Assembly (NCBI RefSeq): GCF_001642995.1
Contig: NZ_LOHS01000070.1
Location: 62,001-126,000 of the forward strand
Direction of reading: 5' to 3'
From: Streptomyces jeddahensis
GTDB taxonomy: Bacteria > Actinomycetota > Actinomycetes > Streptomycetales > Streptomycetaceae
DNA length: 64,000 bases
Position numbers and translations under genes: made by a program. Shown here in pieces: positions 2,921-58,051 of the stretch; positions within the stretch are counted from its first letter, which is position 1, and every line of letters starts with the position of its first letter. Under the pieces are notes generated by a model. That model was given only the letters and a program-made list of their open reading frames with translations. It had not been told where the DNA came from and did no database searches.

Positions 2921-3031
2921 CAGCGTCCTTGTGCTCGGGGTTGTGAGCTGTTGTCGATTGACTGGGCACTGGGGCCATCCGGCGTGCAGGAGTGAGTGTC
3001 GGGGCCGCGGCGGGTGCTGATGTCCGGGGGT

Positions 3032-3047
3032 GGGAACGGAAGTTCCC
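3032..3047 (+). repeat. Small inverted repeat at the 5' end of the TnpB-like gene
   Basis: GGGAAC, four bases, then GTTCCC. It lies just upstream of the preferred ATG (3055). It could be part of a left element end or a leader hairpin; no function is assigned. Confidence 0.35.
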
Positions 3048-3054
3048 GTGTCGA

Positions 3055-4644
3055 ATGCGTGACCTTTGTGGGTGGTGCTCGTTGGGTGGGCAGTGGGTTC
3101 TTCGGCTCGTGTTGTACGGGGGTGGAGGGGTGGGTGGGCTGCGGGAGCTGGCGGCGCCGTTCGTGGTGCCCGGCCCGTCGGGAGTCGCCGTCCGTGACCG
3201 GCTCAAGGGTCTGACCGCTGGGGATGAGCAGGTTCTTCGGCTGGTCGGCGATCTACTGGGCACGCTCGCCTCCCGCGATCTGAAGGCGCGGTGCGCGGCC
3301 GGGCTGGGCCACGACACCGAGCGGTGGGCAGAGCGCAAACGCACCCTCACGCCAGAGTCCTCGTCGCGCTGGGCAGGGTCGGTCACGAAGGCCACGCACG
3401 ATCAGTGGGCGCTCGCCCGGCGCGGCCAGCTCGCGCACATCCAGAGCCTTGAGGCCGCGATCGCGACGATCACGCACCGGCTGTCCCTGCCTCTGGGAGA
3501 GAAGGGCACCAAGCAGGTACCGGGTGGCTACCGCAGCAGGCGGGAGTGGTTCGCCAAGTCCCGCCGCCTGCAGGTGCTGGAGGACCGGCTGGAGGCGGCG
3601 CGGGCGGACCGGGAGGCCGGGCGGGTGCGCGTGGTGCGGGGCGGGAAGCGGCTGCTGAACACCCGCCACCATCTGGAGGCCGCCCGGCTCACCGAGGCCG
3701 ATTGGCGCGCCCGGTGGCAGGCCAGGCGGCGGTTCCTCCAGGCCGACGGCGAGTCCGGGAAGCGGTTCGGCAACGAGACCATACGCGTCAGCGACGACGG
3801 TGAGGTCTCCCTTAAGCTCCCCGCGCCGCTGGCGCACCTGGCCAACGCGCCGTACGGCCGGTACGTGCTCGCCGCACGCGTGAGCTTCCCGCACCGGGGC
3901 GAGCAGTGGCGCGACCGCGTCACCGCCAACCGAGCCGTCGCCTACCGTATCCACGAAGACACCGTGCAGGGCCGCTGGTACCTGACCGCGTCCTGGACGA
4001 TCCCGCCGGTCAAGACGGTGCCGCTGGAGGCGGCCCGCGCGGGCGGCTTAGTCGGCGTCGACACCAACGCCGATCACCTCGCCGCCTGGCGCCTTGACGC
4101 ACACGGCAACCCCGTCGGCAAACCACTTCGGTTCACCTACGACCTGTCCGGTACCGCCGAGCACCGCGACGTCCAGGTCCGCCACGCGCTGATCCGCCTG
4201 CTGCACTGGGCCGCCCGGCACGGCCTGTCCATCGCGATCGAAGACCTCGACTTCACCGCGGAGAAGAGCCGCGAGAAGCACGGCGGCCGCAAGCGGTTCC
4301 GCAAGCTCATCTCCGGCATGCCCATCAGCAGACTCCGGGCCCGGCTCGTCAGCATGGCGGCCGAACTCGGCATCACCGTCGTCGCCGTGGACCCGGCCTA
4401 CACCTCCAAGTGGGGCGCCCAGCACTGGCAGAAGCCCCTCACCAGCCAGACCAGGAAGACCACCCGCCACGACGCTGCCGCCGTGGCGATCGGCAGGCGC
4501 GCCCTGGGGCACCCGATCCGGCGACGGACGGCACCGCCCCCACACGACCAGAGCGATCGTGCGGGGCATCGGACCGTCCAGGCCGTATCGGTGGCCCCGG
4601 GGCGTGAGGGAAACTGCCCCAGCATCCCCGGACCACGGACATGA
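3055..4644 (+). CDS. TnpB-like (IS200/IS605-type OrfB) RuvC-fold protein lacking the zinc ribbon
   Basis: A 529-aa protein from ATG 3055; the frame is open back to GTG 2992 (550 aa) and the start is uncertain. A basic, helical N-terminal half precedes a RuvC-like nuclease core: GLVGVDTNAD (first Asp), SIAIEDLDF (catalytic Glu) and TRHDAAAVAIGRR (last Asp), in TnpB order. DPAYTSKWG is in the right place, but the CxxC...CxxC zinc ribbon that normally follows is missing. TnpB proteins are RNA-guided endonucleases of IS200/IS605 and IS607 elements. No TnpA or serine resolvase lies nearby, so any movement would depend on a transposase elsewhere. Family membership is fairly sure; nuclease activity is inferred from the intact D/E/D. 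Confidence 0.75.
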   Translation: MRDLCGWCSLGGQWVLRLVLYGGGGVGGLRELAAPFVVPGPSGVAVRDRLKGLTAGDEQVLRLVGDLLGTLASRDLKARCAAGLGHDTERWAERKRTLTPESSSRWAGSVTKATHDQWALARRGQLAHIQSLEAAIATITHRLSLPLGEKGTKQVPGGYRSRREWFAKSRRLQVLEDRLEAARADREAGRVRVVRGGKRLLNTRHHLEAARLTEADWRARWQARRRFLQADGESGKRFGNETIRVSDDGEVSLKLPAPLAHLANAPYGRYVLAARVSFPHRGEQWRDRVTANRAVAYRIHEDTVQGRWYLTASWTIPPVKTVPLEAARAGGLVGVDTNADHLAAWRLDAHGNPVGKPLRFTYDLSGTAEHRDVQVRHALIRLLHWAARHGLSIAIEDLDFTAEKSREKHGGRKRFRKLISGMPISRLRARLVSMAAELGITVVAVDPAYTSKWGAQHWQKPLTSQTRKTTRHDAAAVAIGRRALGHPIRRRTAPPPHDQSDRAGHRTVQAVSVAPGREGNCPSIPGPRT

Positions 4645-44893: not shown

Positions 44894-45388
44894 TCAGCCG
44901 ACTGTGAGCCGGGTCGGCTGGACGCCTGTGAGAAGGGCCGACAGGGCCTGGTCGATGGTGTCGCCGAGGTACCAGTCGCCGCTGTGGTCGAGGCTGTAGA
45001 CGCGGCCTTCGGCGTCGATGGCGAGGAGGGCCTGGGTCTCGCTCTCCTCGCCGAGGGGGCAGACCTCGCTGCCGAGGGCGCGTCCGAGGTCGCCGAGGGT
45101 GCGGGCCAAGTGGAGCCCGTGCAGGGGCTCGAAATGGAGGGCGGCGGGGGCGATCTGCCGTCCGGGCCCCGAGGGCGTGATGTGCAGTCCGCCGAACTCC
45201 GCCCATGCCTCGACGGCAGCGGGGAAGACGCTGTGTTCGTGTCCTGCGGGTGAGACGTGTCCGCGGAGGGTGTCGGCCCAGTATTCGGCTTGTTTGATGT
45301 CCCAGCGTCCCGGCTGCCAGCCCGCTGCGCGCAGGGCGGCGTCGACGGCGACGGGGAAGCGTGTGGTGGAGGTGCGGTCGGGGTGCAT
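44894..45388 (-). CDS. SUKH-3-type immunity-fold protein
   Basis: A 164-aa soluble protein with the SUKH-3 pattern: TRFPVAVDAALRAAGWQPGR at the N-terminus, AVEAWAEFGGLHI in the middle, and VCPLGEE, LLAIDAEGRVYSLDHSGDWYLGD and an amphipathic C-terminal helix. SUKH proteins commonly neutralise nucleic-acid-targeting toxins in polymorphic toxin systems. It lies 70 bases downstream of the deaminase-fold gene and in the same orientation, fitting a toxin-then-immunity order. No signal peptide. The function is inferred from family and position only. Confidence 0.82.
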   Translation of the reverse strand: MHPDRTSTTRFPVAVDAALRAAGWQPGRWDIKQAEYWADTLRGHVSPAGHEHSVFPAAVEAWAEFGGLHITPSGPGRQIAPAALHFEPLHGLHLARTLGDLGRALGSEVCPLGEESETQALLAIDAEGRVYSLDHSGDWYLGDTIDQALSALLTGVQPTRLTVG

Positions 45389-45458: not shown

Positions 45459-45965
45459 TCAGTCGTCGGGCTCGGTGGGGTCGACGATGCGTACGCCGAA
45501 GTGGGCCGCGAGCGCGGTGCAGGAGCGGCAGGGGCGGGCGAAGCTGCCGTGGAGGGGGTCGCCGTCCTCGCGGATGCGCCGGGTGGTGAGTTTGGCGTTC
45601 TTGAGGGCTTTGCGGGCTTCGCCGTTGGTCATGGGTCTGCGGCGGGCGCGTTTGGAGCGTTCGCTGTCCGCGGCCGTGAGGTGCCGGGAGATGAGGATGG
45701 CTTCGGCGCAGCGTCCGGTGAAGCGTTCGCGCTGGCCGCTCGTCAGGGCGTCGAGGTAGTCCTGTACGAGGTGGTGGAGTGCCGGGGGCTGTTCACCGCG
45801 GGCGGGCGTGCCGGTGAGGGTGGTGCCGCGGACGGAGAGCGCGGCGGCGACGGTGGGGAGGATGCCGTCGCGGCGGTGGTTCAGGGTGGGGGCATGCGGA
45901 GTTTCGGCGCTGCTCCAGCCGATCCGGGGGTCGCCGGATGCGGTGTCTGTCTGTGCTGTGTGCAT
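45459..45965 (-). CDS. YwqJ-like putative deaminase
   Basis: A 168-aa protein with a complete zinc-deaminase signature: GRCAEAILISRHL (Cys86-Ala-Glu88, zinc ligand and proton shuttle) and ARPCRSCTALAAHFGV (Cys146 and Cys149). The order and spacing match the YwqJ family of toxin-type deaminases, which are thought to deaminate nucleic acid or nucleotide bases. The N-terminal 60 residues are disordered and there is no Sec/Tat signal or WXG100 partner. SUKH-3 follows on the same strand and an SMI1/KNR4 gene diverges upstream. Toxic activity is a prediction. Confidence 0.78.
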   Translation of the reverse strand: MHTAQTDTASGDPRIGWSSAETPHAPTLNHRRDGILPTVAAALSVRGTTLTGTPARGEQPPALHHLVQDYLDALTSGQRERFTGRCAEAILISRHLTAADSERSKRARRRPMTNGEARKALKNAKLTTRRIREDGDPLHGSFARPCRSCTALAAHFGVRIVDPTEPDD

Positions 45966-46248
45966 GTGGTGCTGCTCCCCTCTTGCGCGCGGCGGCTGCC
46001 GCCAGTACGGATGGCCGCCGAGTGCGGGGACAGCCTGCCAAATGCGCTGCGCGGTACGGAAGCTGGGGGCTGTGCGACACGCTGGGGGTTCGCCGTGGGG
46101 GTACCTCCCAGGCCCTTGAGGCGCTGGGGGATGTCACGGGCGGGTGACCGCTGGTCACGGAACCGGAGGCCCGGTGACCGGTGTCGTTCTACCGCATAGG
46201 CTGTCGACATCCGCGATCCAACTTTCAGTGCCGCAGGGGGCAACGGTC
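45966..46248. promoter_or_regulatory. Divergent intergenic region of the deaminase-SUKH island
   Basis: A 283-base gap between the YwqJ-like gene (leftward) and the SMI1/KNR4 gene (rightward) that must contain both promoters. No gene, obvious operator palindrome or repeat was found in it. Confidence 0.4.
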
Positions 46249-47235
46249 ATGACGACAGGTCGGCTCGGGCAGCAAGCCGCGCCGCCGAACGCTGCTTACG
46301 CCGGGCAGGTCGTGCACTTCCCGGACCCGGTACGGGCCGCTCGCCATCCTAGGGGTGTGCGGGTGGACGAGGGGGGCTTTCCGGACTTCTCACCCTATGC
46401 GCGTGCGGCGGCTGAAATCGCCGATCCTCCGGAGGGGTTCGGGGTAGACGAACTGCGGTTGACGGACTATGTGTCGGCGAACGCGGTGATGGCGGCGCAG
46501 GGTCATGAGCTGTGGGACACGATTCCGCCGGTGGCGACTCCGCACGGCTGGACGTGGCATCACGTGCGGGGCACGCGTCGTCTCGAGCTGGTGCCGGTCG
46601 AGGTGAAGGCGTTGTTGCGGCACCACGGCGGTCTCGCGACGGCGGCCGTCGACCAGAACAAGCGGGGCACGCGTCCGTTGCAGGAGACGCGTCCTGTGCA
46701 CTTCGGCCTGCCGAAGTCGTCGGTGGCGGTGACGGAGCTGCAGATCCAGGGTGCCGAGGAGGACTTGGGGTACCGGCTGCCGGGCGCGTACCGGTCGTTT
46801 CTGAAGGCGGCCGGTGGCTGTGCTCCGGTGGGTGCCGCGCTGGACGCCGAGCTGGGGCTGCTGGTCGATCAGCCGTTCTTCACGGTGCGGGACGAGGCCG
46901 CGGTCAACGACCTTGTGTACGTCAACAAGTGCCTGCGTGACCATCTGACGAAGGATTACCTGGGTGTCGCGTTCGTCCAGGGCGGTCTGCTCGCCGTGAA
47001 GGTGAAGGGCGACGGGGCCGGTTCGGTGTGGTTCTGCGCGTACGACGACGCGCGGGACCGGGACGGCTGGCAGGTGACGGAGCGGGTGCAGCGGCTGCTG
47101 CTGCCCTGCGGCGACGACTTCGACGCGTTTCTGGCGCGGCTCGCGGGTAATCCGCCGGAGCTGGAGACCGTGGCCAACCTGATGGTGGACGGCGGCTTCG
47201 CGCGTGCCGTACCGGTGTCCTCGGCGGGGAAGTGA
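46249..47235 (+). CDS. SMI1/KNR4 (SUKH-1 type) domain protein
   Basis: A 328-aa protein from ATG 46249. Residues 1-130 are a poorly conserved region (QVVHFPDPVRAARHPRG; HGWTWHHVRGTRRLELVP). The second half has the SUKH core: AEEDLGYRLPGAYRSFLKAAGG, DQPFFTV, YLGVAFVQGGLLAVKVKG, GSVWFCAYDDA and a C-terminal FDAFLARLAG helix. Its stop overlaps the start of the 925-aa gene in GTGA, so the two are translationally coupled. The immunity or partner role toward the deaminase domain of that protein is inferred. Confidence 0.82.
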   Translation: MTTGRLGQQAAPPNAAYAGQVVHFPDPVRAARHPRGVRVDEGGFPDFSPYARAAAEIADPPEGFGVDELRLTDYVSANAVMAAQGHELWDTIPPVATPHGWTWHHVRGTRRLELVPVEVKALLRHHGGLATAAVDQNKRGTRPLQETRPVHFGLPKSSVAVTELQIQGAEEDLGYRLPGAYRSFLKAAGGCAPVGAALDAELGLLVDQPFFTVRDEAAVNDLVYVNKCLRDHLTKDYLGVAFVQGGLLAVKVKGDGAGSVWFCAYDDARDRDGWQVTERVQRLLLPCGDDFDAFLARLAGNPPELETVANLMVDGGFARAVPVSSAGK

Positions 47236-50009
47236 GCTTGTCGATGGTGACCTTTGCGCAGGCGCAGGAGCGCGCGGAAGAGTGGATCAACGGTGACCTG
47301 CCCGCGTATCTGCATCGCGAGGTGCGGGTGCGGGAGTTCGAGCTGGGCTTCGTGGTGTGGGCGGAGGACCGCGACGGGGATGCCTCCCAGGCGTCCGGCA
47401 CGGGGGGAGGCGCCCGTTCCGACGGCGGCCGGCAGCGGCTCGTCATCGCCCGGGACAGCGGCGAGGCGACGCTGTGGCCGGGGCTGCCGGTGGGCGAGGT
47501 CATCCGCCGGTACGAGGAGGAGTACGGCGCGTCGGAGGTGCCGGCGGCGTCGGCGCCGCCGGTGGCCGATCGGGTCGACCTCAACCAGACGTCGTTCCTG
47601 CTGACTCCGCCGGAGTGGTTGCAGGAGGCGGCGGACCGGCTGGGGGCTGCGGATCGGCGAGGGGCCGGGGAGCCGGGGGGTGCCGGTTCCCCCTCTCCCT
47701 CGGACGCCGGCGGCCGCGGGCAGGCTCCCGGCGAGGGGCTGCCCGCGACGACGCCGGGTGCTCCGGCCGGGGTGACGCCGTGGGCGGGGACCGACACCAA
47801 CGCGGACGCGGGCGACGACGGTTCCGTGCCGCTCCCCGCGACAGTCTTCGCGCCGCCTCTGGTCGGCGCGGACGATGAGGAGGCCCCGCCGCCGGGTGTG
47901 GCGCCGGATGCGAAGACGGCGCTGATGTCGGGCGGCAGCCAGCTGCCGCCCACCGCGGTGGCGCCCGCCCTGGACAAGTCGGGCGCGCCTGCGTACGGCT
48001 ATCCGCAGGTTCCGGGTACGCCGTCCGGCCCTCCTGCGTCTGGTGCGCCTGGCGCGCCGGGTGCTCCTGCGTCGTACGGCTATCCGCAGGGGCCGGGTAC
48101 TCAGCCGGGCCCTCCCGCGCCCGGTGCGCCGGGTGCCTCCGCGTCGTACGGCTATCCGGGGTCCGATGCCGCCCGGCCGCCGGCGTCTGCGGGCGCGGCC
48201 GGGCCCGGTGCGGCCCGGCTGCCGGCCGCTCCGGGTGTGCCGGGGGCTCCCGGTGCCCCCGGGTCCCCTGGTACCCCGGGCGCTCCGCTGCTGCCCGCCG
48301 CCGGTGACATCGCGGATGTCGCGACCAGCAAGGCCGAGGCCCCGCCGCGCGGTGCGCGGGGCGGCGGGCCGTCGACGCCTTCGCCTCCGGGCGCGCCGGG
48401 TACGCCGGGTGCCCGTCCGGGCGGTACGCCTCCGCCCGGCGGTCCCGGTGCTTCCGGGACCCCGGCGGGCGGCTACGTTCCGACGCAGCTGGTGCCGCGG
48501 CTGGGCCCGGATGCTCCACAGCCGCCAGGTACTCCCGGTGCTCCGCCGCAGTCCCCGGGCACTTCGGGCGCACCGGGCGCTTCGGGCGCTCCTGGTACGT
48601 CTTCGGGCGGCGGGCACCAGGGAGCCGCGGTGCCGGCTGGCCCTGGCCTCGGCGGTACGGGCGGGCCCGGCGTGCCTCCGCCGCCGGGTGCACCGGGCGC
48701 GCCGGGCGCTCCGGGTACGCCTCTGGGTGGCGTCCACCAGGCGGCGACCGTGCTCTCCGCGCCTTCGGCGGGCGGTCCGAGCGTGCCACCGCCGCCGGGG
48801 GCTCCCGGAGCTCCGGGCGTCCCGGGAATGCCGCCGCCAGGTATGTCCGGGCAGGTGCCGGGGCAGCCGATCCCAGGCCCGCCCATGCCGGGCCAACTCG
48901 GACGGCCCGTGCCGGGACGGCCCGTGCCGGGGCAGCCCGTGCCGGGACAGCCGGTGCCGGGACAGCCCGTGCCGGGACAGCCTGTGCCCGGGCAGCAGCC
49001 CCCCGCGTACGGCTATCCGCCGCAGCCGCCCGGGCAGCCGACCGTCGGCCCCGGCTACCAGGCCGTGCTGCGCTACCGCGCGCAGGACGGCTCCGAGCAG
49101 CAGCTCATCCGCCGCTCGGCACCCGGCACACCGCACCCGGAGTGGCAGATCTTCCACGAGTTGCGCTCCATGAACGTCCCGCCGGACCAGGTCCTGGAGC
49201 TGCACACCGAGCTGGAGTCCTGCGAGCTGCCCGGCGCGTACTGCGCGCGCATGATCCGTGAGAACTGGCCGCAGGCGCGCATCACGTCGATCGCGCCGTA
49301 CGGCAAGGACCACGCCTCGCGCCGGCAGGGCATGCAGCAACTGCTCGCGCACCAGGGCGAGTTGCACCAGGTCGCGGACGGGCCGGCGCGTCCGGCTCCG
49401 GTGCGTGCGCCGCTGCCGCAGGTGCAGCCCGCGCCGCCGATCCCGCCGGAGGGTGTCGCGCAGGAGCTGGCGGCCGCGTTCGGTCCCGGCGTCTTCCGGT
49501 TCGACCAGCGGGCGGTGTCCCGGCAGGGTGTGCCCGACATCGTGGCGCACACACTGGTGGTGGCCGGACTGCCCGTCGACATGGGCCCGTTCTTCTGGGC
49601 GCAGGCCCAGCCGGGCCGCCCGGTGCCGACCCTCGCCGAGCTGGCACAGGAGCGCGGGGTGCAGCCCGCGTCGGACGCCGGTTCGTATCTGGTCATGGGC
49701 AGCGACTTCGGCCGTGCCGTCTGTGTCCAGTACGGCACGGCGAACATCGTCGCGGTGCCGGTGGAGGCGGGCCCGGGCGGCGCTCCCGTACCGCCGCAGT
49801 TCGTGAACACCGGGCTGCCGGAGTTCGTGCGCTGCCTCGCCCTGCTGGGGCGGATGTGGCGGCTGCGGTACGGGCTCAACCAGGAGCAGGCGGGCCGCTG
49901 GACCGTCGACTTCCAGGCGCAGCTGGCCGCGCTCGACCCGGCGGCGCTCGCGTCGCCGGAGAGCTGGTGGTCGGTCCTGCTCGAGCAGATGTGGGACGGG
50001 CTGCTCTAG
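47232..50009 (+). CDS. Multidomain protein: Imm35/YrhB-like, collagen-like linker, deaminase-like and SUKH-4-like domains
   Basis: A 925-aa protein from GTG 47232 (ATG 47244 also possible). Residues 1-110 resemble the Imm35/YrhB fold (AQERAEEWINGDLPAYL, ELGFVVWAED, GEATLWPGLPVGEVIRRYEEEYG). About 130-605 is a Gly/Pro/Ala linker with collagen-like Gly-X-Y stretches, four YGYP motifs and a run of PVPGQ pentapeptides. Around 609-700 is a deaminase-like unit: HPEWQIFHEL (H635, E637) and ESCELPGAYC (C664, C671), with six rather than two residues between the cysteines. Residues 715-925 look like SUKH-4. No signal peptide. A deaminase and immunity-type domains in one chain suggest a tethered or self-inhibited enzyme; that is inference. 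Confidence 0.72.
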   Translation: MSLSMVTFAQAQERAEEWINGDLPAYLHREVRVREFELGFVVWAEDRDGDASQASGTGGGARSDGGRQRLVIARDSGEATLWPGLPVGEVIRRYEEEYGASEVPAASAPPVADRVDLNQTSFLLTPPEWLQEAADRLGAADRRGAGEPGGAGSPSPSDAGGRGQAPGEGLPATTPGAPAGVTPWAGTDTNADAGDDGSVPLPATVFAPPLVGADDEEAPPPGVAPDAKTALMSGGSQLPPTAVAPALDKSGAPAYGYPQVPGTPSGPPASGAPGAPGAPASYGYPQGPGTQPGPPAPGAPGASASYGYPGSDAARPPASAGAAGPGAARLPAAPGVPGAPGAPGSPGTPGAPLLPAAGDIADVATSKAEAPPRGARGGGPSTPSPPGAPGTPGARPGGTPPPGGPGASGTPAGGYVPTQLVPRLGPDAPQPPGTPGAPPQSPGTSGAPGASGAPGTSSGGGHQGAAVPAGPGLGGTGGPGVPPPPGAPGAPGAPGTPLGGVHQAATVLSAPSAGGPSVPPPPGAPGAPGVPGMPPPGMSGQVPGQPIPGPPMPGQLGRPVPGRPVPGQPVPGQPVPGQPVPGQPVPGQQPPAYGYPPQPPGQPTVGPGYQAVLRYRAQDGSEQQLIRRSAPGTPHPEWQIFHELRSMNVPPDQVLELHTELESCELPGAYCARMIRENWPQARITSIAPYGKDHASRRQGMQQLLAHQGELHQVADGPARPAPVRAPLPQVQPAPPIPPEGVAQELAAAFGPGVFRFDQRAVSRQGVPDIVAHTLVVAGLPVDMGPFFWAQAQPGRPVPTLAELAQERGVQPASDAGSYLVMGSDFGRAVCVQYGTANIVAVPVEAGPGGAPVPPQFVNTGLPEFVRCLALLGRMWRLRYGLNQEQAGRWTVDFQAQLAALDPAALASPESWWSVLLEQMWDGLL
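48888..49000 (+). repeat. 15-bp tandem repeats encoding PVPGQ/PVPGR pentapeptides
   Basis: Within the linker of the 925-aa gene, near-identical 15-bp units (core GTGCCGGGACAGCC) repeat about seven times, encoding Pro-Val-Pro-Gly-Gln/Arg. Such tracts change length easily by slippage. Confidence 0.75.
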
Positions 50010-50118: not shown

Positions 50119-50362
50119 CGTGTGGTCGCGGATGTCGGCGGTCGGTCGGGCGGCACCCGCGTGTGATTGCGGTTTCTGCTGCTTTGTGCCTCATCCTTGA
50201 GCGGGCGGCCGGGCGGAGTGTCGCGTTATGAGTGTTTCCTCTTGATCCATCAAGATGTGCGCCACGTCGAGTTGTTTGACGGGTTGTACGGAGTGGTGTA
50301 CGTCATGCCGGGTTCGGGACTGCCGGACCGCCCGATCCGGTGGGCCGAGAGGGGATTCGAGG

Positions 50363-51262
50363 ATGAGCAGCGCATCGGTGTCGCCCCACGGCTTCGTCGT
50401 CGTGCGGGGCCGCGCCTACCGGCCCGGGCAGGTGGACGCGTACGTCACCCGCCTGGCGAAGGAGCGCGACCAGGCGTGGGAGCGCGCCGCGCGACTGACC
50501 GTGCTGGCCAAGGACATGGAGACCGAGGCGGAGCGGCTGCGGGAGGTCGTCGCCGGGCTCACTCCACAGACGTACGAGACGCTCGGGGAGCGTGCGCAGC
50601 GGATCCTCGCGCTCGGCAAGGAGGAGGCGGCCGCCGTGCTGGCGGCGGCGCACGCGGATGCCGGGCGGGTCACCGCGGCCGCCGAGGAGGCTGCGCGCGA
50701 GATGGGCGACGCCGCGCGCGTCTACGCGGACACCGTGCGCGCCGAGGCCGACGAGCGCGCCCGGCAGCGGCTGCTCGCCGACCAGGCGACCGCCGACGAG
50801 GTCCGGATCGCGGCCCGGCGCGAGGTGAAGGAGCGGCGGGGTGAGGCGCTGGCCGTGCTGCGCGAGATGCGCGAGCGGACCGCGGAGATGCTCGCCGATC
50901 TGGAGAAGGAGCACGCCGAGCGGTGGGGCGCCGCCGGGCTCGAGATCGCCGAGCGGGAGGCGGCGGCGGACAGGCGGCACGAGGAACTGGCGGCTGCGGC
51001 CGACGGGCGTCTGTCCGAGGCGGAGCGGGCGTTCGCGGAGGCGGAGGAGTCGGCGTGGCGTATCCAGGAGGAGGCGCAGACCCGGGCCGGGGAGCTTCTT
51101 GCGGATGCGCGGGCGTGTGAGGATGCGATCGGGCGGGAGACGGAGCGGGTGTTGCGGGTGCATGGGGAGCAGTGGGACGAGGTGCGGGCGCATATGGATC
51201 ATGTGCGGAACAGTCTTGCGGCGTTGACGGGGCGGGGGGCTCGGGTGGAGGGGGCGTCGTAG
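50363..51262 (+). CDS. DivIVA-like long coiled-coil protein ('cellulose-binding protein' family)
   Basis: A 299-aa protein from ATG 50363. The first 45 residues (HGFVVVRGRAYRPGQVDAYVTRLAKERDQAWERA) resemble the membrane-targeting start of DivIVA proteins. The rest is an almost unbroken charged helix rich in Ala, Glu and Arg with heptad periodicity to about residue 280. Streptomyces proteins of this type are often labelled 'cellulose-binding' from an early homologue. Relatives such as Scy and FilP are cytoskeletal proteins at hyphal tips, so a polar-growth or scaffolding role is plausible but unproven. A pair of palindromes follows. Confidence 0.8.
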   Translation: MSSASVSPHGFVVVRGRAYRPGQVDAYVTRLAKERDQAWERAARLTVLAKDMETEAERLREVVAGLTPQTYETLGERAQRILALGKEEAAAVLAAAHADAGRVTAAAEEAAREMGDAARVYADTVRAEADERARQRLLADQATADEVRIAARREVKERRGEALAVLREMRERTAEMLADLEKEHAERWGAAGLEIAEREAAADRRHEELAAAADGRLSEAERAFAEAEESAWRIQEEAQTRAGELLADARACEDAIGRETERVLRVHGEQWDEVRAHMDHVRNSLAALTGRGARVEGAS

Positions 51263-53586: not shown

Positions 53587-54228
53587 CCCGGTTCTCCTTG
53601 CGCGGCTGAGGGTCCCGTTCGGGGACCGCAGGGAGTGGAGCGGGTGGAGGGTGGGGCGAGACGTTACTCGCTGGTATCGGCGTGCGCGACGGTTTCGGCA
53701 AACTGAGTGGTCGGTATGCGCTTGCTACCGCTGTCGCTGCTGCCGCTACTGCCGTCCGACGACCCTTACTTGACCCTCTCGTCGCGTCAGGGTGCAGCAT
53801 CGGAGCAGCGAGGGCGGAGGCGACCCCGCAGCGAGGGCGGAGGCAACCCTGAGTCCTTCTCCACCGGCGGGTGGAGAACCCCTAGGGGTGTCTCCGTACT
53901 TGGGGCGGGGGAGGGTTCGTACCGCCGGAGGACGAGAAGGCACGCGGCCGCTCTTTAGCCTGGCTTTACGCGGTCGGGGCGCGGCGGTCAGCCGCCGGAG
54001 CGTCCGCACCGCCCGTTCGGAGGTGGGGTTTTCCCCCGCACAAGACTGCGCTGGGCACCAGCGCGCCGGACCGCTCGACGAGACCAGACTGAAGCGCGCA
54101 CAGCACGGCAGCCCGGCCGCCCGCCGGGCATCGCATCACCGCTGACCGACATCCACGGCCCATCACTGCGCCACCACCACTGCGCCACCATCACTGCGCC
54201 ATCTGCCGACCGACATAGGAGACTTACC
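53587..54228. other. 642-bp non-coding region with short tandem repeats
   Basis: No convincing gene. It contains a 22-bp direct repeat (53805-53826 and 53828-53849, one mismatch), several GC hairpins (for example around 53857-53872 and 53982-53997), a TTTAGCC...TTTACG AT-richer spot near 53953-53970 and a three-unit 14-bp tandem repeat (54161-54202) just before the ABC operon. It probably includes promoters for the divergent DUF485 and ABC genes. Confidence 0.55.
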
Positions 54229-57676: not shown

Positions 57677-58051
57677 TCAGGCCCGCAGGGTCTGGACGTC
57701 GTATTTCGGGATCCAGCTGTCGCGCGTGACGATCGTCAGCCCCTCAGTCTGAGCCTGGGCGATCAGCATGCGGTCGAAGGGGTCGCGGTGGTGCGGCGGC
57801 AGTTGTCCGGCGCGCGCACCGTGTGCCGCCGTGATCACCAGTGGTTTGAAGTGGCTGTCGCGTAACCGCTCGGCGAGATCCGATGGGCCGGGCAGTTTGC
57901 CGATGGACAACTTGATGGCGACTTCCCAGGGGGATACGGCGCTGAGATAGACCTCGGGCTCCGTGTCGAGCCAGCCCTTGACCTCGTCGGAGAGCTCTGG
58001 GGAGTCGCCCAGCCACCACAGAGCGACGTGCGTGTCCAGGAGTAGCCTCAT
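57677..58051 (-). CDS. vapC: VapC-like PIN-domain toxin
   Basis: A 124-aa protein with the PIN nuclease acidic set: MRLLLDTHVALWWL (first Asp), VSPWEVAIKLSIGKL (Glu), HRDPFDRMLIAQAQ (Asp pair) and IVTRDSWIPKY (last Asp). PIN toxins cleave RNA, often tRNA or rRNA. Its ATG overlaps the stop of the antitoxin gene upstream. It resembles the PHHRDPFDRMLIAQA subgroup common in mobile or accessory toxin-antitoxin modules. Confidence 0.88.
   Translation of the reverse strand: MRLLLDTHVALWWLGDSPELSDEVKGWLDTEPEVYLSAVSPWEVAIKLSIGKLPGPSDLAERLRDSHFKPLVITAAHGARAGQLPPHHRDPFDRMLIAQAQTEGLTIVTRDSWIPKYDVQTLRA

What the first reader, a model, noticed from the sequence alone, without database searches (positions are those of the whole stretch)
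47232..50009. 925-aa chimera: immunity-like domains at both ends, collagen-like linker and deaminase-like domain in one chain
Imm35/YrhB-like and SUKH-4-like domains flank a Gly-X-Y/PVPGQ linker of about 475 residues and a deaminase-like unit with HPEW and C-x6-C. Fusing immunity-type domains to a deaminase suggests a self-inhibited enzyme or a scaffold. The C-x6-C spacing departs from CxxC, so zinc binding needs proof. The linker DNA is built of near-identical 15-bp units, so its length should vary between strains.
Basis: partly seen in the sequence, partly recalled or inferred. Interest (0 to 1): 0.7.

Follow-up and report, generated by a model that had tools for sequence, protein, structure and literature searches.

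The report
Streptomyces deaminase fused to its immunity
A soil bacterium keeps, like nearly all of its relatives that were checked, one large protein in which a toxin-type DNA/RNA-altering enzyme is joined to the kind of domain that normally neutralises such toxins, which suggests a built-in safety catch on an enzyme used inside the cell rather than a weapon.

Summary
The chimera is real: Imm35/YrhB-like domain (profile match only), 470-residue Pro/Gly/Ala linker, XOO_2897-type deaminase (PF14440) and SUKH-4 (PF14435) in one 925-aa chain. C-x6-C is no anomaly: it is the signature of the intact SUKH-4-fused deaminases, and toxin relatives range from C-x2-C to C-x8-C. HPEW and C-x6-C are intact in 107 of 107 Streptomyces rows (105 distinct) and 20 of 20 loci of other genera; in 10 of 10 compact linker-less paralogues His and both Cys are gone together. 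It is not a polymorphic toxin: no trafficking domain found, SUKH-4 at the C terminus, strong matches in 193 of 200 genomes, deaminase more conserved than GlmU (12 of 12 loci), omega 0.14. It overlaps a WHH nuclease-SUKH-1 fusion gene, with a divergent YwqJ deaminase/SUKH-3 pair. Linker length varies (247-820 aa) but keeps Thr-centred motifs (4.8-fold over shuffles; Ser version depleted). Best reading: an intracellular deaminase held in check in cis by its own SUKH-4, on a docking or phospho-regulated tether. Activity, inhibition and substrate are untested. New variant of a known kind.

The parts
47232..50009 (+). 925-aa fusion gene: Imm35/YrhB-like domain - Pro/Gly/Ala linker - XOO_2897-type deaminase - SUKH-4
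47244..47540 (+). Imm35/YrhB-like N-terminal domain (residues 5-103; helix, four strands, helix)
   Evidence: hhalign 95.8% to Imm35/YrhB profile, controls under 1%; AF2 pLDDT 78.5, pTM 0.70; no Pfam hit
47577..47636 (+). conserved segment DLNQTSFLLTPPEWLQEAAD after the N-terminal domain (residues 116-135)
   Evidence: TSFLL[TS]PP in 89 of 90 Streptomyces rows, shuffled mean 0.000; looser form in 16 of 20 other-genus loci
47637..49046 (+). Pro/Gly/Ala-rich linker, residues 136-605, with Thr-centred motifs at residues 203, 240, 417 and 505
48900..48996 (+). 15-bp tandem repeat, 6.5 copies (PVPGQ)
49047..49349 (+). XOO_2897-type deaminase domain, residues 606-706
   Evidence: PF14440 E 3.5e-36; cytidine deaminase fold Z 8.1
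49134..49142 (+). H635-P-E637: HxE motif
   Evidence: HPEW in 107 of 107 rows and 20 of 20 other-genus loci
49221..49244 (+). C664-x6-C671: second zinc-ligand motif
49458..49988 (+). SUKH-4 domain, residues 743-919
   Evidence: PF14435 E 2.2e-47; YobK SUKH structure Z 8.4
46144..47235 (+). upstream gene: WHH HNH-nuclease domain fused to SUKH-1; stop overlaps the start of the fusion gene (true start probably further downstream than 46144)
   Evidence: PF14414 1.1e-14, PF12639 4.6e-11, PF09346 2.9e-11; present in 94 of 94 loci of 10 kb or more with an orthologue
45459..45965 (-). divergent YwqJ-type deaminase gene (C86-x-E88, C146-x2-C149)
   Evidence: PF14431 6e-26; these four residues in 95 of 95 rows
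44894..45388 (-). SUKH-3 gene paired with the YwqJ-type deaminase
   Evidence: PF14433 8.4e-59
50255..51262 (+). downstream coiled-coil-like gene, fast-evolving (omega 0.50)
   Evidence: weak DivIVA-like hits below cut-off

Best explanation
The protein is a chromosomally fixed, intracellular toxin-immunity fusion. A zinc-dependent nucleic-acid or nucleotide deaminase (HPE + C-x6-C) is tethered to a SUKH-4 domain that binds it in cis and limits its activity. A long disordered Pro/Gly/Ala tether carrying conserved Thr-centred short motifs joins this unit to an N-terminal Imm35/YrhB-like domain. The motifs and the N-terminal domain are the likely inputs (partner docking or Thr phosphorylation) that localise or release the enzyme. 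It works beside a WHH nuclease-SUKH-1 fusion made from the overlapping upstream gene, which has the same toxin-then-immunity layout. Shown: domains, residues, conservation, cassette, selection, motif enrichment. Inferred: catalytic activity, cis-inhibition, trigger, intracellular use.
For: Domains. Deaminase and SUKH-4 folds with a confident joint model. Catalytic motifs kept in 107 of 107 orthologue rows and 20 of 20 loci from other genera, down to about 60% identity. Purifying selection: median omega 0.138 deaminase, 0.143 SUKH-4, 0.118 Imm35-like, against 0.162 GlmU; deaminase more identical than GlmU in 12 of 12 loci where both could be compared. Core gene: strong match in 193 of 200 Streptomyces genomes and in 44 of 51 genomes of other genera of the family. 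Deaminase and SUKH-4 fused in both orders in different loci, which argues that the pair is a physical unit. Same layout in the upstream WHH-SUKH-1 gene, present in 94 of 94 loci. Thr motif 5.85 versus 1.21 per linker in Streptomyces and 4.78 versus 1.08 in other genera; the Ser version is depleted, the reversed version only slightly up in Streptomyces (1.74 versus 1.20). No trafficking domain by Pfam.
Against: No activity, binding, expression or localisation data; no signal-peptide predictor was run. Whether SUKH-4 covers the active site could not be measured, because no coordinates were available. FHA domains exist in the genome (10 matches) but none on the window's contig, so a phospho-reader is a guess. 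The exact linker motifs are much less conserved in other genera (0 to 8 of 20 loci for six of eight patterns). One same-genus genome (G010) keeps WHH-SUKH-1 but has only a partial N-terminal match and no deaminase-SUKH-4, and two genera of the family lack the orthologue, so the gene can be lost. SUKH-4 could instead be an adaptor that presents substrate. dS is high, so omega values are for comparison only.
Confidence: 0.5

Rival explanations
1. Bivalent orphan immunity protein: Imm35-like and SUKH-4 domains protect the cell from incoming type VII toxins that carry a papain-fold deamidase and a deaminase; the internal deaminase domain is a decoy or remnant.
For: A compact paralogue (Imm35-like, dead deaminase, SUKH-4) lies about 3 kb from a 1,484-aa WXG100_2 protein that carries both Gln_amidase (PF15644) and a C-terminal deaminase, on the same strand and in the same domain order (L154), and again in L201. 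Imm35 is reported as specific to Tox-PL1, though the same paper's table also lists Ntox40 (PMC3482391, passages); that PF15644, 'papain fold toxin 1', is that toxin is my inference. Inactive effector copies are discussed as decoys in other bacterial conflict systems (PMC7159879, passages).
Against: The core copies keep every catalytic residue, whereas the paralogue near the toxin lost them; a decoy need not be catalytic. No type VII toxin domain in the five genes of the region scanned. Immunity genes usually diversify with their toxins (general knowledge), but this one is conserved more than GlmU. Outside the family the compact form stands among genes that look ordinary by eye (L203-L205).
Confidence: 0.25
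2. Ordinary housekeeping or RNA-modifying deaminase, in which SUKH-4 and the Imm35-like domain have become substrate or partner adaptors and no toxicity is left.
For: Genus- and family-wide retention and strong purifying selection; best structural matches of the deaminase domain include free cytidine deaminases.
Against: Cassette partners are toxin/immunity types; Foldseek's top matches are polynucleotide deaminases, APOBECs and DddA, though at weak E-values from 0.026.
Confidence: 0.15
3. Exported antibacterial toxin delivered with its immunity domain attached.
For: Toxin-type deaminase family; long Pro-rich linker as in the type VII-like toxin of L154.
Against: No WXG, LXG or other trafficking domain by Pfam; SUKH-4, not the toxin, is at the C terminus; no variable tip between species.
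Confidence: 0.07
4. Degenerate relic of a toxin system.
For: None beyond its odd domain make-up and its loss in G010.
Against: omega 0.12-0.14 in the three folded domains of the protein, 193 of 200 genomes, catalytic residues kept in 107 of 107 rows.
Confidence: 0.02

Closest known systems
XOO_2897-like deaminases (PF14440) of polymorphic toxin systems
   Same: Deaminase fold, HxE and paired cysteines; PF14440 at 123.8 bits. Zhang et al. 2012 (PMC3482391) list XOO2897 and YwqJ deaminases among the partners of SUKH immunity domains (passages).
   Different: Not a C-terminal warhead on an export protein; fused to SUKH-4 and an Imm35-like domain in one chain, conserved instead of polymorphic.
SUKH immunity proteins and SUKH fusions
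   Same: SUKH-4 over the curated cut-off. The same paper notes that SUKH 'shows fusions on occasions to toxins and immunity domains', e.g. Tox-GHH.
   Different: The passages that I saw do not describe this Imm35-like/deaminase/SUKH-4 architecture, its synteny or its family-wide fixation. The 2011 SUKH and deaminase papers of the same group are not held, so prior mention there cannot be excluded.
CapRel fused toxin-antitoxin (PMC9712102, abstract and outline read)
   Same: Works like: a toxic enzyme and its inhibitor in one chain, autoinhibited until a trigger binds the C-terminal antitoxin part.
   Different: Unrelated domains; here the gene is a genus-wide core gene, and no trigger is known.
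YrhB/Imm35 family (PF15567)
   Same: Profile-profile match over the whole domain.
   Different: Below detection by the Pfam model; no papain-fold toxin in the genes of the region scanned.
Compact Imm35-like/dead deaminase/SUKH-4 paralogues (this work)
   Same: Same three domains in the same order.
   Different: No long linker (10-16 residues in L036-L040); His and both Cys lost; about 3 kb from a type VII-like toxin gene in L154 and L201.

Membership tests
XOO_2897-like deaminase (PF14440) | Pfam score over curated cut-off | tested here: met
   123.8 bits versus 27
XOO_2897-like deaminase (PF14440) | HxE and paired Cys zinc site | tested here: met
   H635/E637/C664/C671; conserved in 107 of 107 rows
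XOO_2897-like deaminase (PF14440) | deaminase fold | tested here: met
   3dmo_B Z 8.1, 79 aligned, rmsd 2.5; secondary structure order. Z is middling; the Pfam match carries the call
XOO_2897-like deaminase (PF14440) | deaminase activity and zinc | not testable with these tools
   needs bench work
SUKH-4 immunity (PF14435) | Pfam score over curated cut-off | tested here: met
   161.9 bits versus 25.5; 2prv_B YobK Z 8.4
SUKH-4 immunity (PF14435) | neutralises the partner toxin | not testable with these tools
   no binding or toxicity assay
Imm35/YrhB (PF15567) | Pfam score over curated cut-off | tested here: not met
   no hit at E 10; own genome has no PF15567 match
Imm35/YrhB (PF15567) | profile similarity over the whole domain | tested here: met
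   hhalign 95.8%, 91 columns; controls 0.2-0.7%. Called 'Imm35-like', not a member
Imm35/YrhB (PF15567) | fold match to a solved relative | tested here: inconclusive
   no chain with Z 5 or more
Imm35/YrhB (PF15567) | association with a papain-fold toxin | tested here: not met
   none in the five genes of the region scanned; met for paralogues in L154 and L201
Type VII polymorphic toxin | N-terminal trafficking domain (WXG/LXG) | tested here: not met
   only PF14440 and PF14435 hit
Type VII polymorphic toxin | toxin domain at the C terminus, variable between strains | tested here: not met
   SUKH-4 is C-terminal; domain fixed across 107 rows
Collagen-like repeat protein | long uninterrupted Gly-X-Y | tested here: not met
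   57 of 470 residues in runs of 4 or more triplets, longest 6
CapRel-type fused toxin-antitoxin | toxin and antitoxin domains in one chain | tested here: inconclusive
   toxin-type deaminase and immunity-type SUKH-4 are in one chain, but neither role was tested
CapRel-type fused toxin-antitoxin | toxSAS (RelA/SpoT-type) toxin domain | tested here: not met
   no such Pfam hit; hence 'works like', not 'is'
Known or candidate anti-phage system | match to a PADLOC model | tested here: not met
   0 families at E 0.01 for six proteins

The most novel reading that the evidence does not exclude
Streptomycetaceae domesticated a set of interbacterial toxin-immunity pairs into a fixed intracellular device. 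A nucleic-acid deaminase and a WHH nuclease, each leashed in cis by its own SUKH domain, are released or recruited through threonine (phospho-)motifs on a length-variable disordered tether, to edit or destroy nucleic acids during development or phage attack. A sister pseudo-deaminase keeps the fold without the chemistry as part of an immunity protein.
Probability: 0.2. Interest if true: 0.82.

Novelty: new variant of a known kind. Interest (0 to 1): 0.6.

Why it matters
Toxin-type deaminases and their immunity domains are normally polymorphic and gained or lost (general knowledge of these systems). Here they are fused, carry all catalytic residues and are conserved more than the cell-wall enzyme GlmU, in almost every Streptomyces genome examined. 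If the deaminase is active and leashed in cis, this is a tractable case of weapons turned into a core regulated enzyme, in a genus with genetics in hand. It also offers a natural set for learning how SUKH-4 controls deaminases (intact fusion in either order, dead sister, warhead relatives), which bears on DddA-type base editors.

Tried and rejected
Collagen-like scaffold: rejected, too few Gly-X-Y triplets. Aberrant C-x6-C: rejected; toxin relatives show C-x2-C, C-x5-C, C-x6-C and C-x8-C. Simple polymorphic toxin: rejected on layout and conservation. Fold search for the N-terminal model (pLDDT 78.5, with 17 residues under 50) gave nothing useful: no Foldseek E under 0.4, no Z of 5 or more; this neither supports nor excludes Imm35. 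No PDB sequence relative of the deaminase domain. Phage records: no match. Plasmids: 4 Streptomyces records, deaminase part only, 30-35% identity. PADLOC: nothing. NCBIfam: nothing for the four toxin/SUKH genes. A first DNA form of the HHxAT motif was too strict and found nothing; the relaxed form finds only the window's own copy in the genome. The generalised Thr motif was drawn from the Streptomyces linkers, so only the other-genus set (18 of the 20 loci could be used) is a semi-independent test. Exact motifs fare worse: [GSA]LP[PKRT]T is in only 13 of 90 Streptomyces rows, and in other genera the HxAT form is in 5 of 20 loci and TALM in 0 of 20. The S. coelicolor gene number of the fusion was not established; SCO3114 is a rod-domain protein (PMC2680258, passages), and that it equals the downstream coiled-coil gene is my guess from recalled numbering.

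Rows dropped: L068 (same contig as L077) from the motif count; L048/L114 and L054/L093 have identical C-terminal parts, so 107 rows (the window's own, as L070, among them) are 105 distinct. L160 was dropped from the Imm35 profile because my extraction was out of frame. L065 was left out of A2 for the same reason. Loci whose linker could not be read in one frame were left out of the linker count (90 rows, 88 after deduplication).


Full report
Observation. The open frame 47232-50009 (+) encodes 925 aa and overlaps the upstream gene by 4 bp. Pfam places an XOO_2897-type deaminase at 606-706 and SUKH-4 at 743-919, both far above cut-off. The N-terminal hundred residues have no Pfam hit. A profile from 26 rows of this domain aligned to a profile of 11 Imm35 loci (8 of them over Pfam's cut-off) plus E. 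coli YrhB gives 95.8% probability over 91 columns; SUKH-4, deaminase, WXG and reversed-Imm35 profiles give 0.2-0.7%. The 15-bp array covers 97 bp only, and Gly-X-Y is sparse.

The deaminase site. The motif is H635-P-E637 ... C664-x6-C671. In AlphaFold2 (32 sequences, pLDDT 89.0, pTM 0.88) the order is strand, strand, helix (starting at HPE), strand, helix (starting after C-x6-C), strand, helix. VIA-align superposes residues 1-102 of the model on cytidine deaminases (Z up to 8.1) and residues 131-279 on YobK (Z 8.4). Foldseek's leading matches are APOBECs and DddA at weak E-values from 0.026, none at 0.001 or better. C-x6-C is shared by the nine reversed-order SUKH-4-deaminase proteins inspected (C-x-MPGHY-C). 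WXG-domain toxins in the same stretches have HSE (where the match reaches it) with C-x5-C or C-x8-C; three further toxin-like frames have HSE or HAE with C-x2-C or C-x6-C. In a FastTree of the short domain alignment one split (local support 0.898) parts these toxin domains from all the SUKH-4-fused ones.

Conservation of the site. All 107 orthologue rows (identity 75% or more, the window's own included; 105 distinct) have HPEW; 106 have the full strict C-x6-C pattern, and the last, L031, differs only at a residue before the first Cys. All 20 loci fetched from other genera of the family keep both motifs. In contrast, the compact paralogue group, Imm35-like plus deaminase plus SUKH-4 with a 10-16-residue joint in L036-L040, has Pro in place of His, Ser, Ala or Glu in place of the first Cys, and Thr, His or Arg in place of the second, in 10 of 10 distinct genes (L036-L040, L201, L203-L206); the Glu of HxE is kept. 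Loss of all three ligands fits one zinc site that has been switched off.

The cassette. Upstream, overlapping, is a WHH HNH-nuclease domain fused to SUKH-1; divergent from it lie a YwqJ-type deaminase and a SUKH-3 gene. Of 94 loci of 10 kb or more with an orthologous deaminase (two identical pairs included), 94 have the WHH and SUKH-1 domains and the Imm35-like domain, and 92 have YwqJ and SUKH-3. The WHH residues H134, W136, W138, H139, H140, H160 and H161 are the same in 98 of 98 rows, and the YwqJ residues C86, E88, C146 and C149 in 95 of 95. In other genera, 19 of 20 loci have WHH-SUKH-1 upstream (the other is clipped at a contig end), but only 11 of 20 show YwqJ/SUKH-3 in the stretch fetched.

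Distribution. In 37 same-genus genomes including its own, 34 have a match of 76% identity or more; of the other three, G001 has only the 37% paralogue and G010 and G030 have none. All three keep WHH-SUKH-1. In G001 and G030 the frame with the Imm35-like domain runs off the contig end, so the rest may be missing from the assembly; G010 has only a partial N-terminal match and no deaminase-SUKH-4. In 200 genomes of the genus (98% complete or more) 195 have some match and 193 a strong one, E below 1e-90; WHH-SUKH-1 is found in 191 of 200, the nine misses all in assemblies of about 240 or more contigs. In 61 genomes of the family, 44 of the 51 from other genera have an orthologue at 62-82% identity; the seven without it belong to two genera. 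A class-wide sample found PF14440 in 28 of 246 genomes, 22 of them of this genus.

Selection. Pairwise against the window in 26 loci, median omega is 0.138 (deaminase), 0.143 (SUKH-4), 0.118 (Imm35-like), 0.120 (WHH) and 0.184 (SUKH-1); it is 0.162 for GlmU (12 loci), 0.412 for YwqJ, 0.329 for SUKH-3 and 0.503 for the downstream gene (25 loci each); PrsA, 0.069, rests on one locus. The deaminase is more identical than GlmU in 12 of 12 loci. The fusion gene and WHH-SUKH-1 thus behave as core genes, the YwqJ/SUKH-3 pair less so.

Linker. Length runs from 338 to 820 aa in 88 deduplicated Streptomyces rows (median 505.5, 78 distinct lengths) and down to 247 aa in other genera. It is 65% Pro, Gly and Ala. 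Short conserved segments survive in it or at its start: TSFLL[TS]PP in 89 of 90 rows, an H-x-AT[VM]L form in 86 of 90 (1.7 copies on average), VFAPPL in 72, IADxxxSKA in 74, all with shuffled means of 0.000; others are weaker, such as VPTQLV in 61 and LPxT in 13 of 90. The generalised form [AEPQ]-T-x-hydrophobic occurs 5.85 times per Streptomyces linker against 1.21 in shuffles, and 4.78 against 1.08 in 18 loci of other genera. The Ser version is depleted (0.90 against 1.55; 1.00 against 1.37); the reversed version is slightly up in Streptomyces (1.74 against 1.20) and not in other genera (1.22 against 1.14). Thr specificity suggests Thr phosphorylation read by an FHA domain, which has high specificity for phosphothreonine (PMC3146460, start of abstract in a listing); this is inference. 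The genome has 10 FHA matches, none on the window's contig.

Relatives and what they say. (a) Reversed SUKH-4-deaminase proteins, with intact motifs, were inspected in nine loci; in eight of them a WXG-domain gene lies in the same stretch, and the ninth ends at a contig edge. In L044, L156, L197, L198, L199 and L200 further SUKH-4-type frames lie nearby. (b) In the window's own genome the compact dead paralogue lies about 3 kb from a 1,484-aa WXG100_2 protein with a papain-fold deamidase (PF15644, 4.5e-27) and a C-terminal PF14440 match (23.5 bits, below cut-off; 28.9 bits, above it, in the genome search), and is followed by a small second Imm35-like gene; L201 repeats this. Because Imm35 is reported to go with Tox-PL1, though that paper's table also lists Ntox40 (PMC3482391, passages), the order Imm35-like then SUKH-4 mirrors papain-fold toxin then deaminase. 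This supports both the Imm35-like label and an immunity role for the compact form. In one other family of the class the compact form stands among genes that look ordinary by eye (L203-L205).

Mechanism. Most likely the window protein is the intact-enzyme branch of this architecture: a deaminase with a SUKH-4 inhibitor in cis, tethered by a motif-bearing linker to an Imm35-like domain, used inside the cell. Fusion in either order argues for a physical deaminase-SUKH-4 unit; strict retention of the chemistry argues against decoy or immunity use alone; lack of a trafficking domain and of variability argues against a delivered toxin. Cis-inhibition, substrate and trigger are inferred. CapRel (PMC9712102, abstract) is the closest thing it works like.

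Literature. XOO_2897 occurs in three papers of the held library. The listings returned for SUKH, deaminase and polymorphic-toxin terms (20 of 76 papers shown), SUKH with Streptomyces and fusion terms (25 of 105), SUKH/YwqJ/Streptomyces terms (6 of 6), toxin-immunity fusion phrases (10 of 10) and Streptomyces type VII toxins with deaminases (15 of 26) show no title or abstract start that describes this locus. The 2011 SUKH and deaminase-fold papers that I recall are not held, so earlier mention of such fusions is possible.

Noticed in passing
L154:13674-18128 (-), i.e. G000:C66: Type VII-like toxin with two warheads in one chain, papain-fold deamidase (PF15644) and a C-terminal deaminase, about 3 kb from a compact protein with two immunity-type domains in the same order; repeated in L201.
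   Followed up: partly
L036-L040, L201, L203-L206: Conserved pseudo-deaminase: fold kept, His and both Cys lost in 10 of 10 genes, in Streptomyces and in one other family of the class.
   Followed up: partly
L156, L197-L200, L041, L042, L044: SUKH-4-deaminase proteins with reversed domain order and intact motifs near WXG-domain genes, several with separate SUKH-4 frames as well: why a toxin locus carries a second deaminase fused to immunity is unexplained.
   Followed up: partly
window 45459-45965 (-): Stand-alone YwqJ-type deaminase uses C-x-E (C86, E88) instead of H-x-E, with C-x2-C, invariant in 95 of 95 rows; no trafficking domain by Pfam.
   Followed up: partly
window 50255-51262 (+): Fast-evolving coiled-coil-like gene downstream in most loci; possibly the rod-domain protein SCO3114 of S. 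coelicolor (PMC2680258), identity not checked.
   Followed up: no
window 2992-4644 (+): 550-aa frame that reads like a TnpB/IS605 OrfB-type protein (recalled pattern, no search run).
   Followed up: no
window 57677-58051 (-): Small frame starting MRLLLDTHVALWWL, which looks like a PIN/VapC-type toxin (recalled pattern, no search run).
   Followed up: no
window 54160-54201: Three copies of a 14-bp unit just upstream of a frame that reads like an ABC transporter ATPase (by eye).
   Followed up: no
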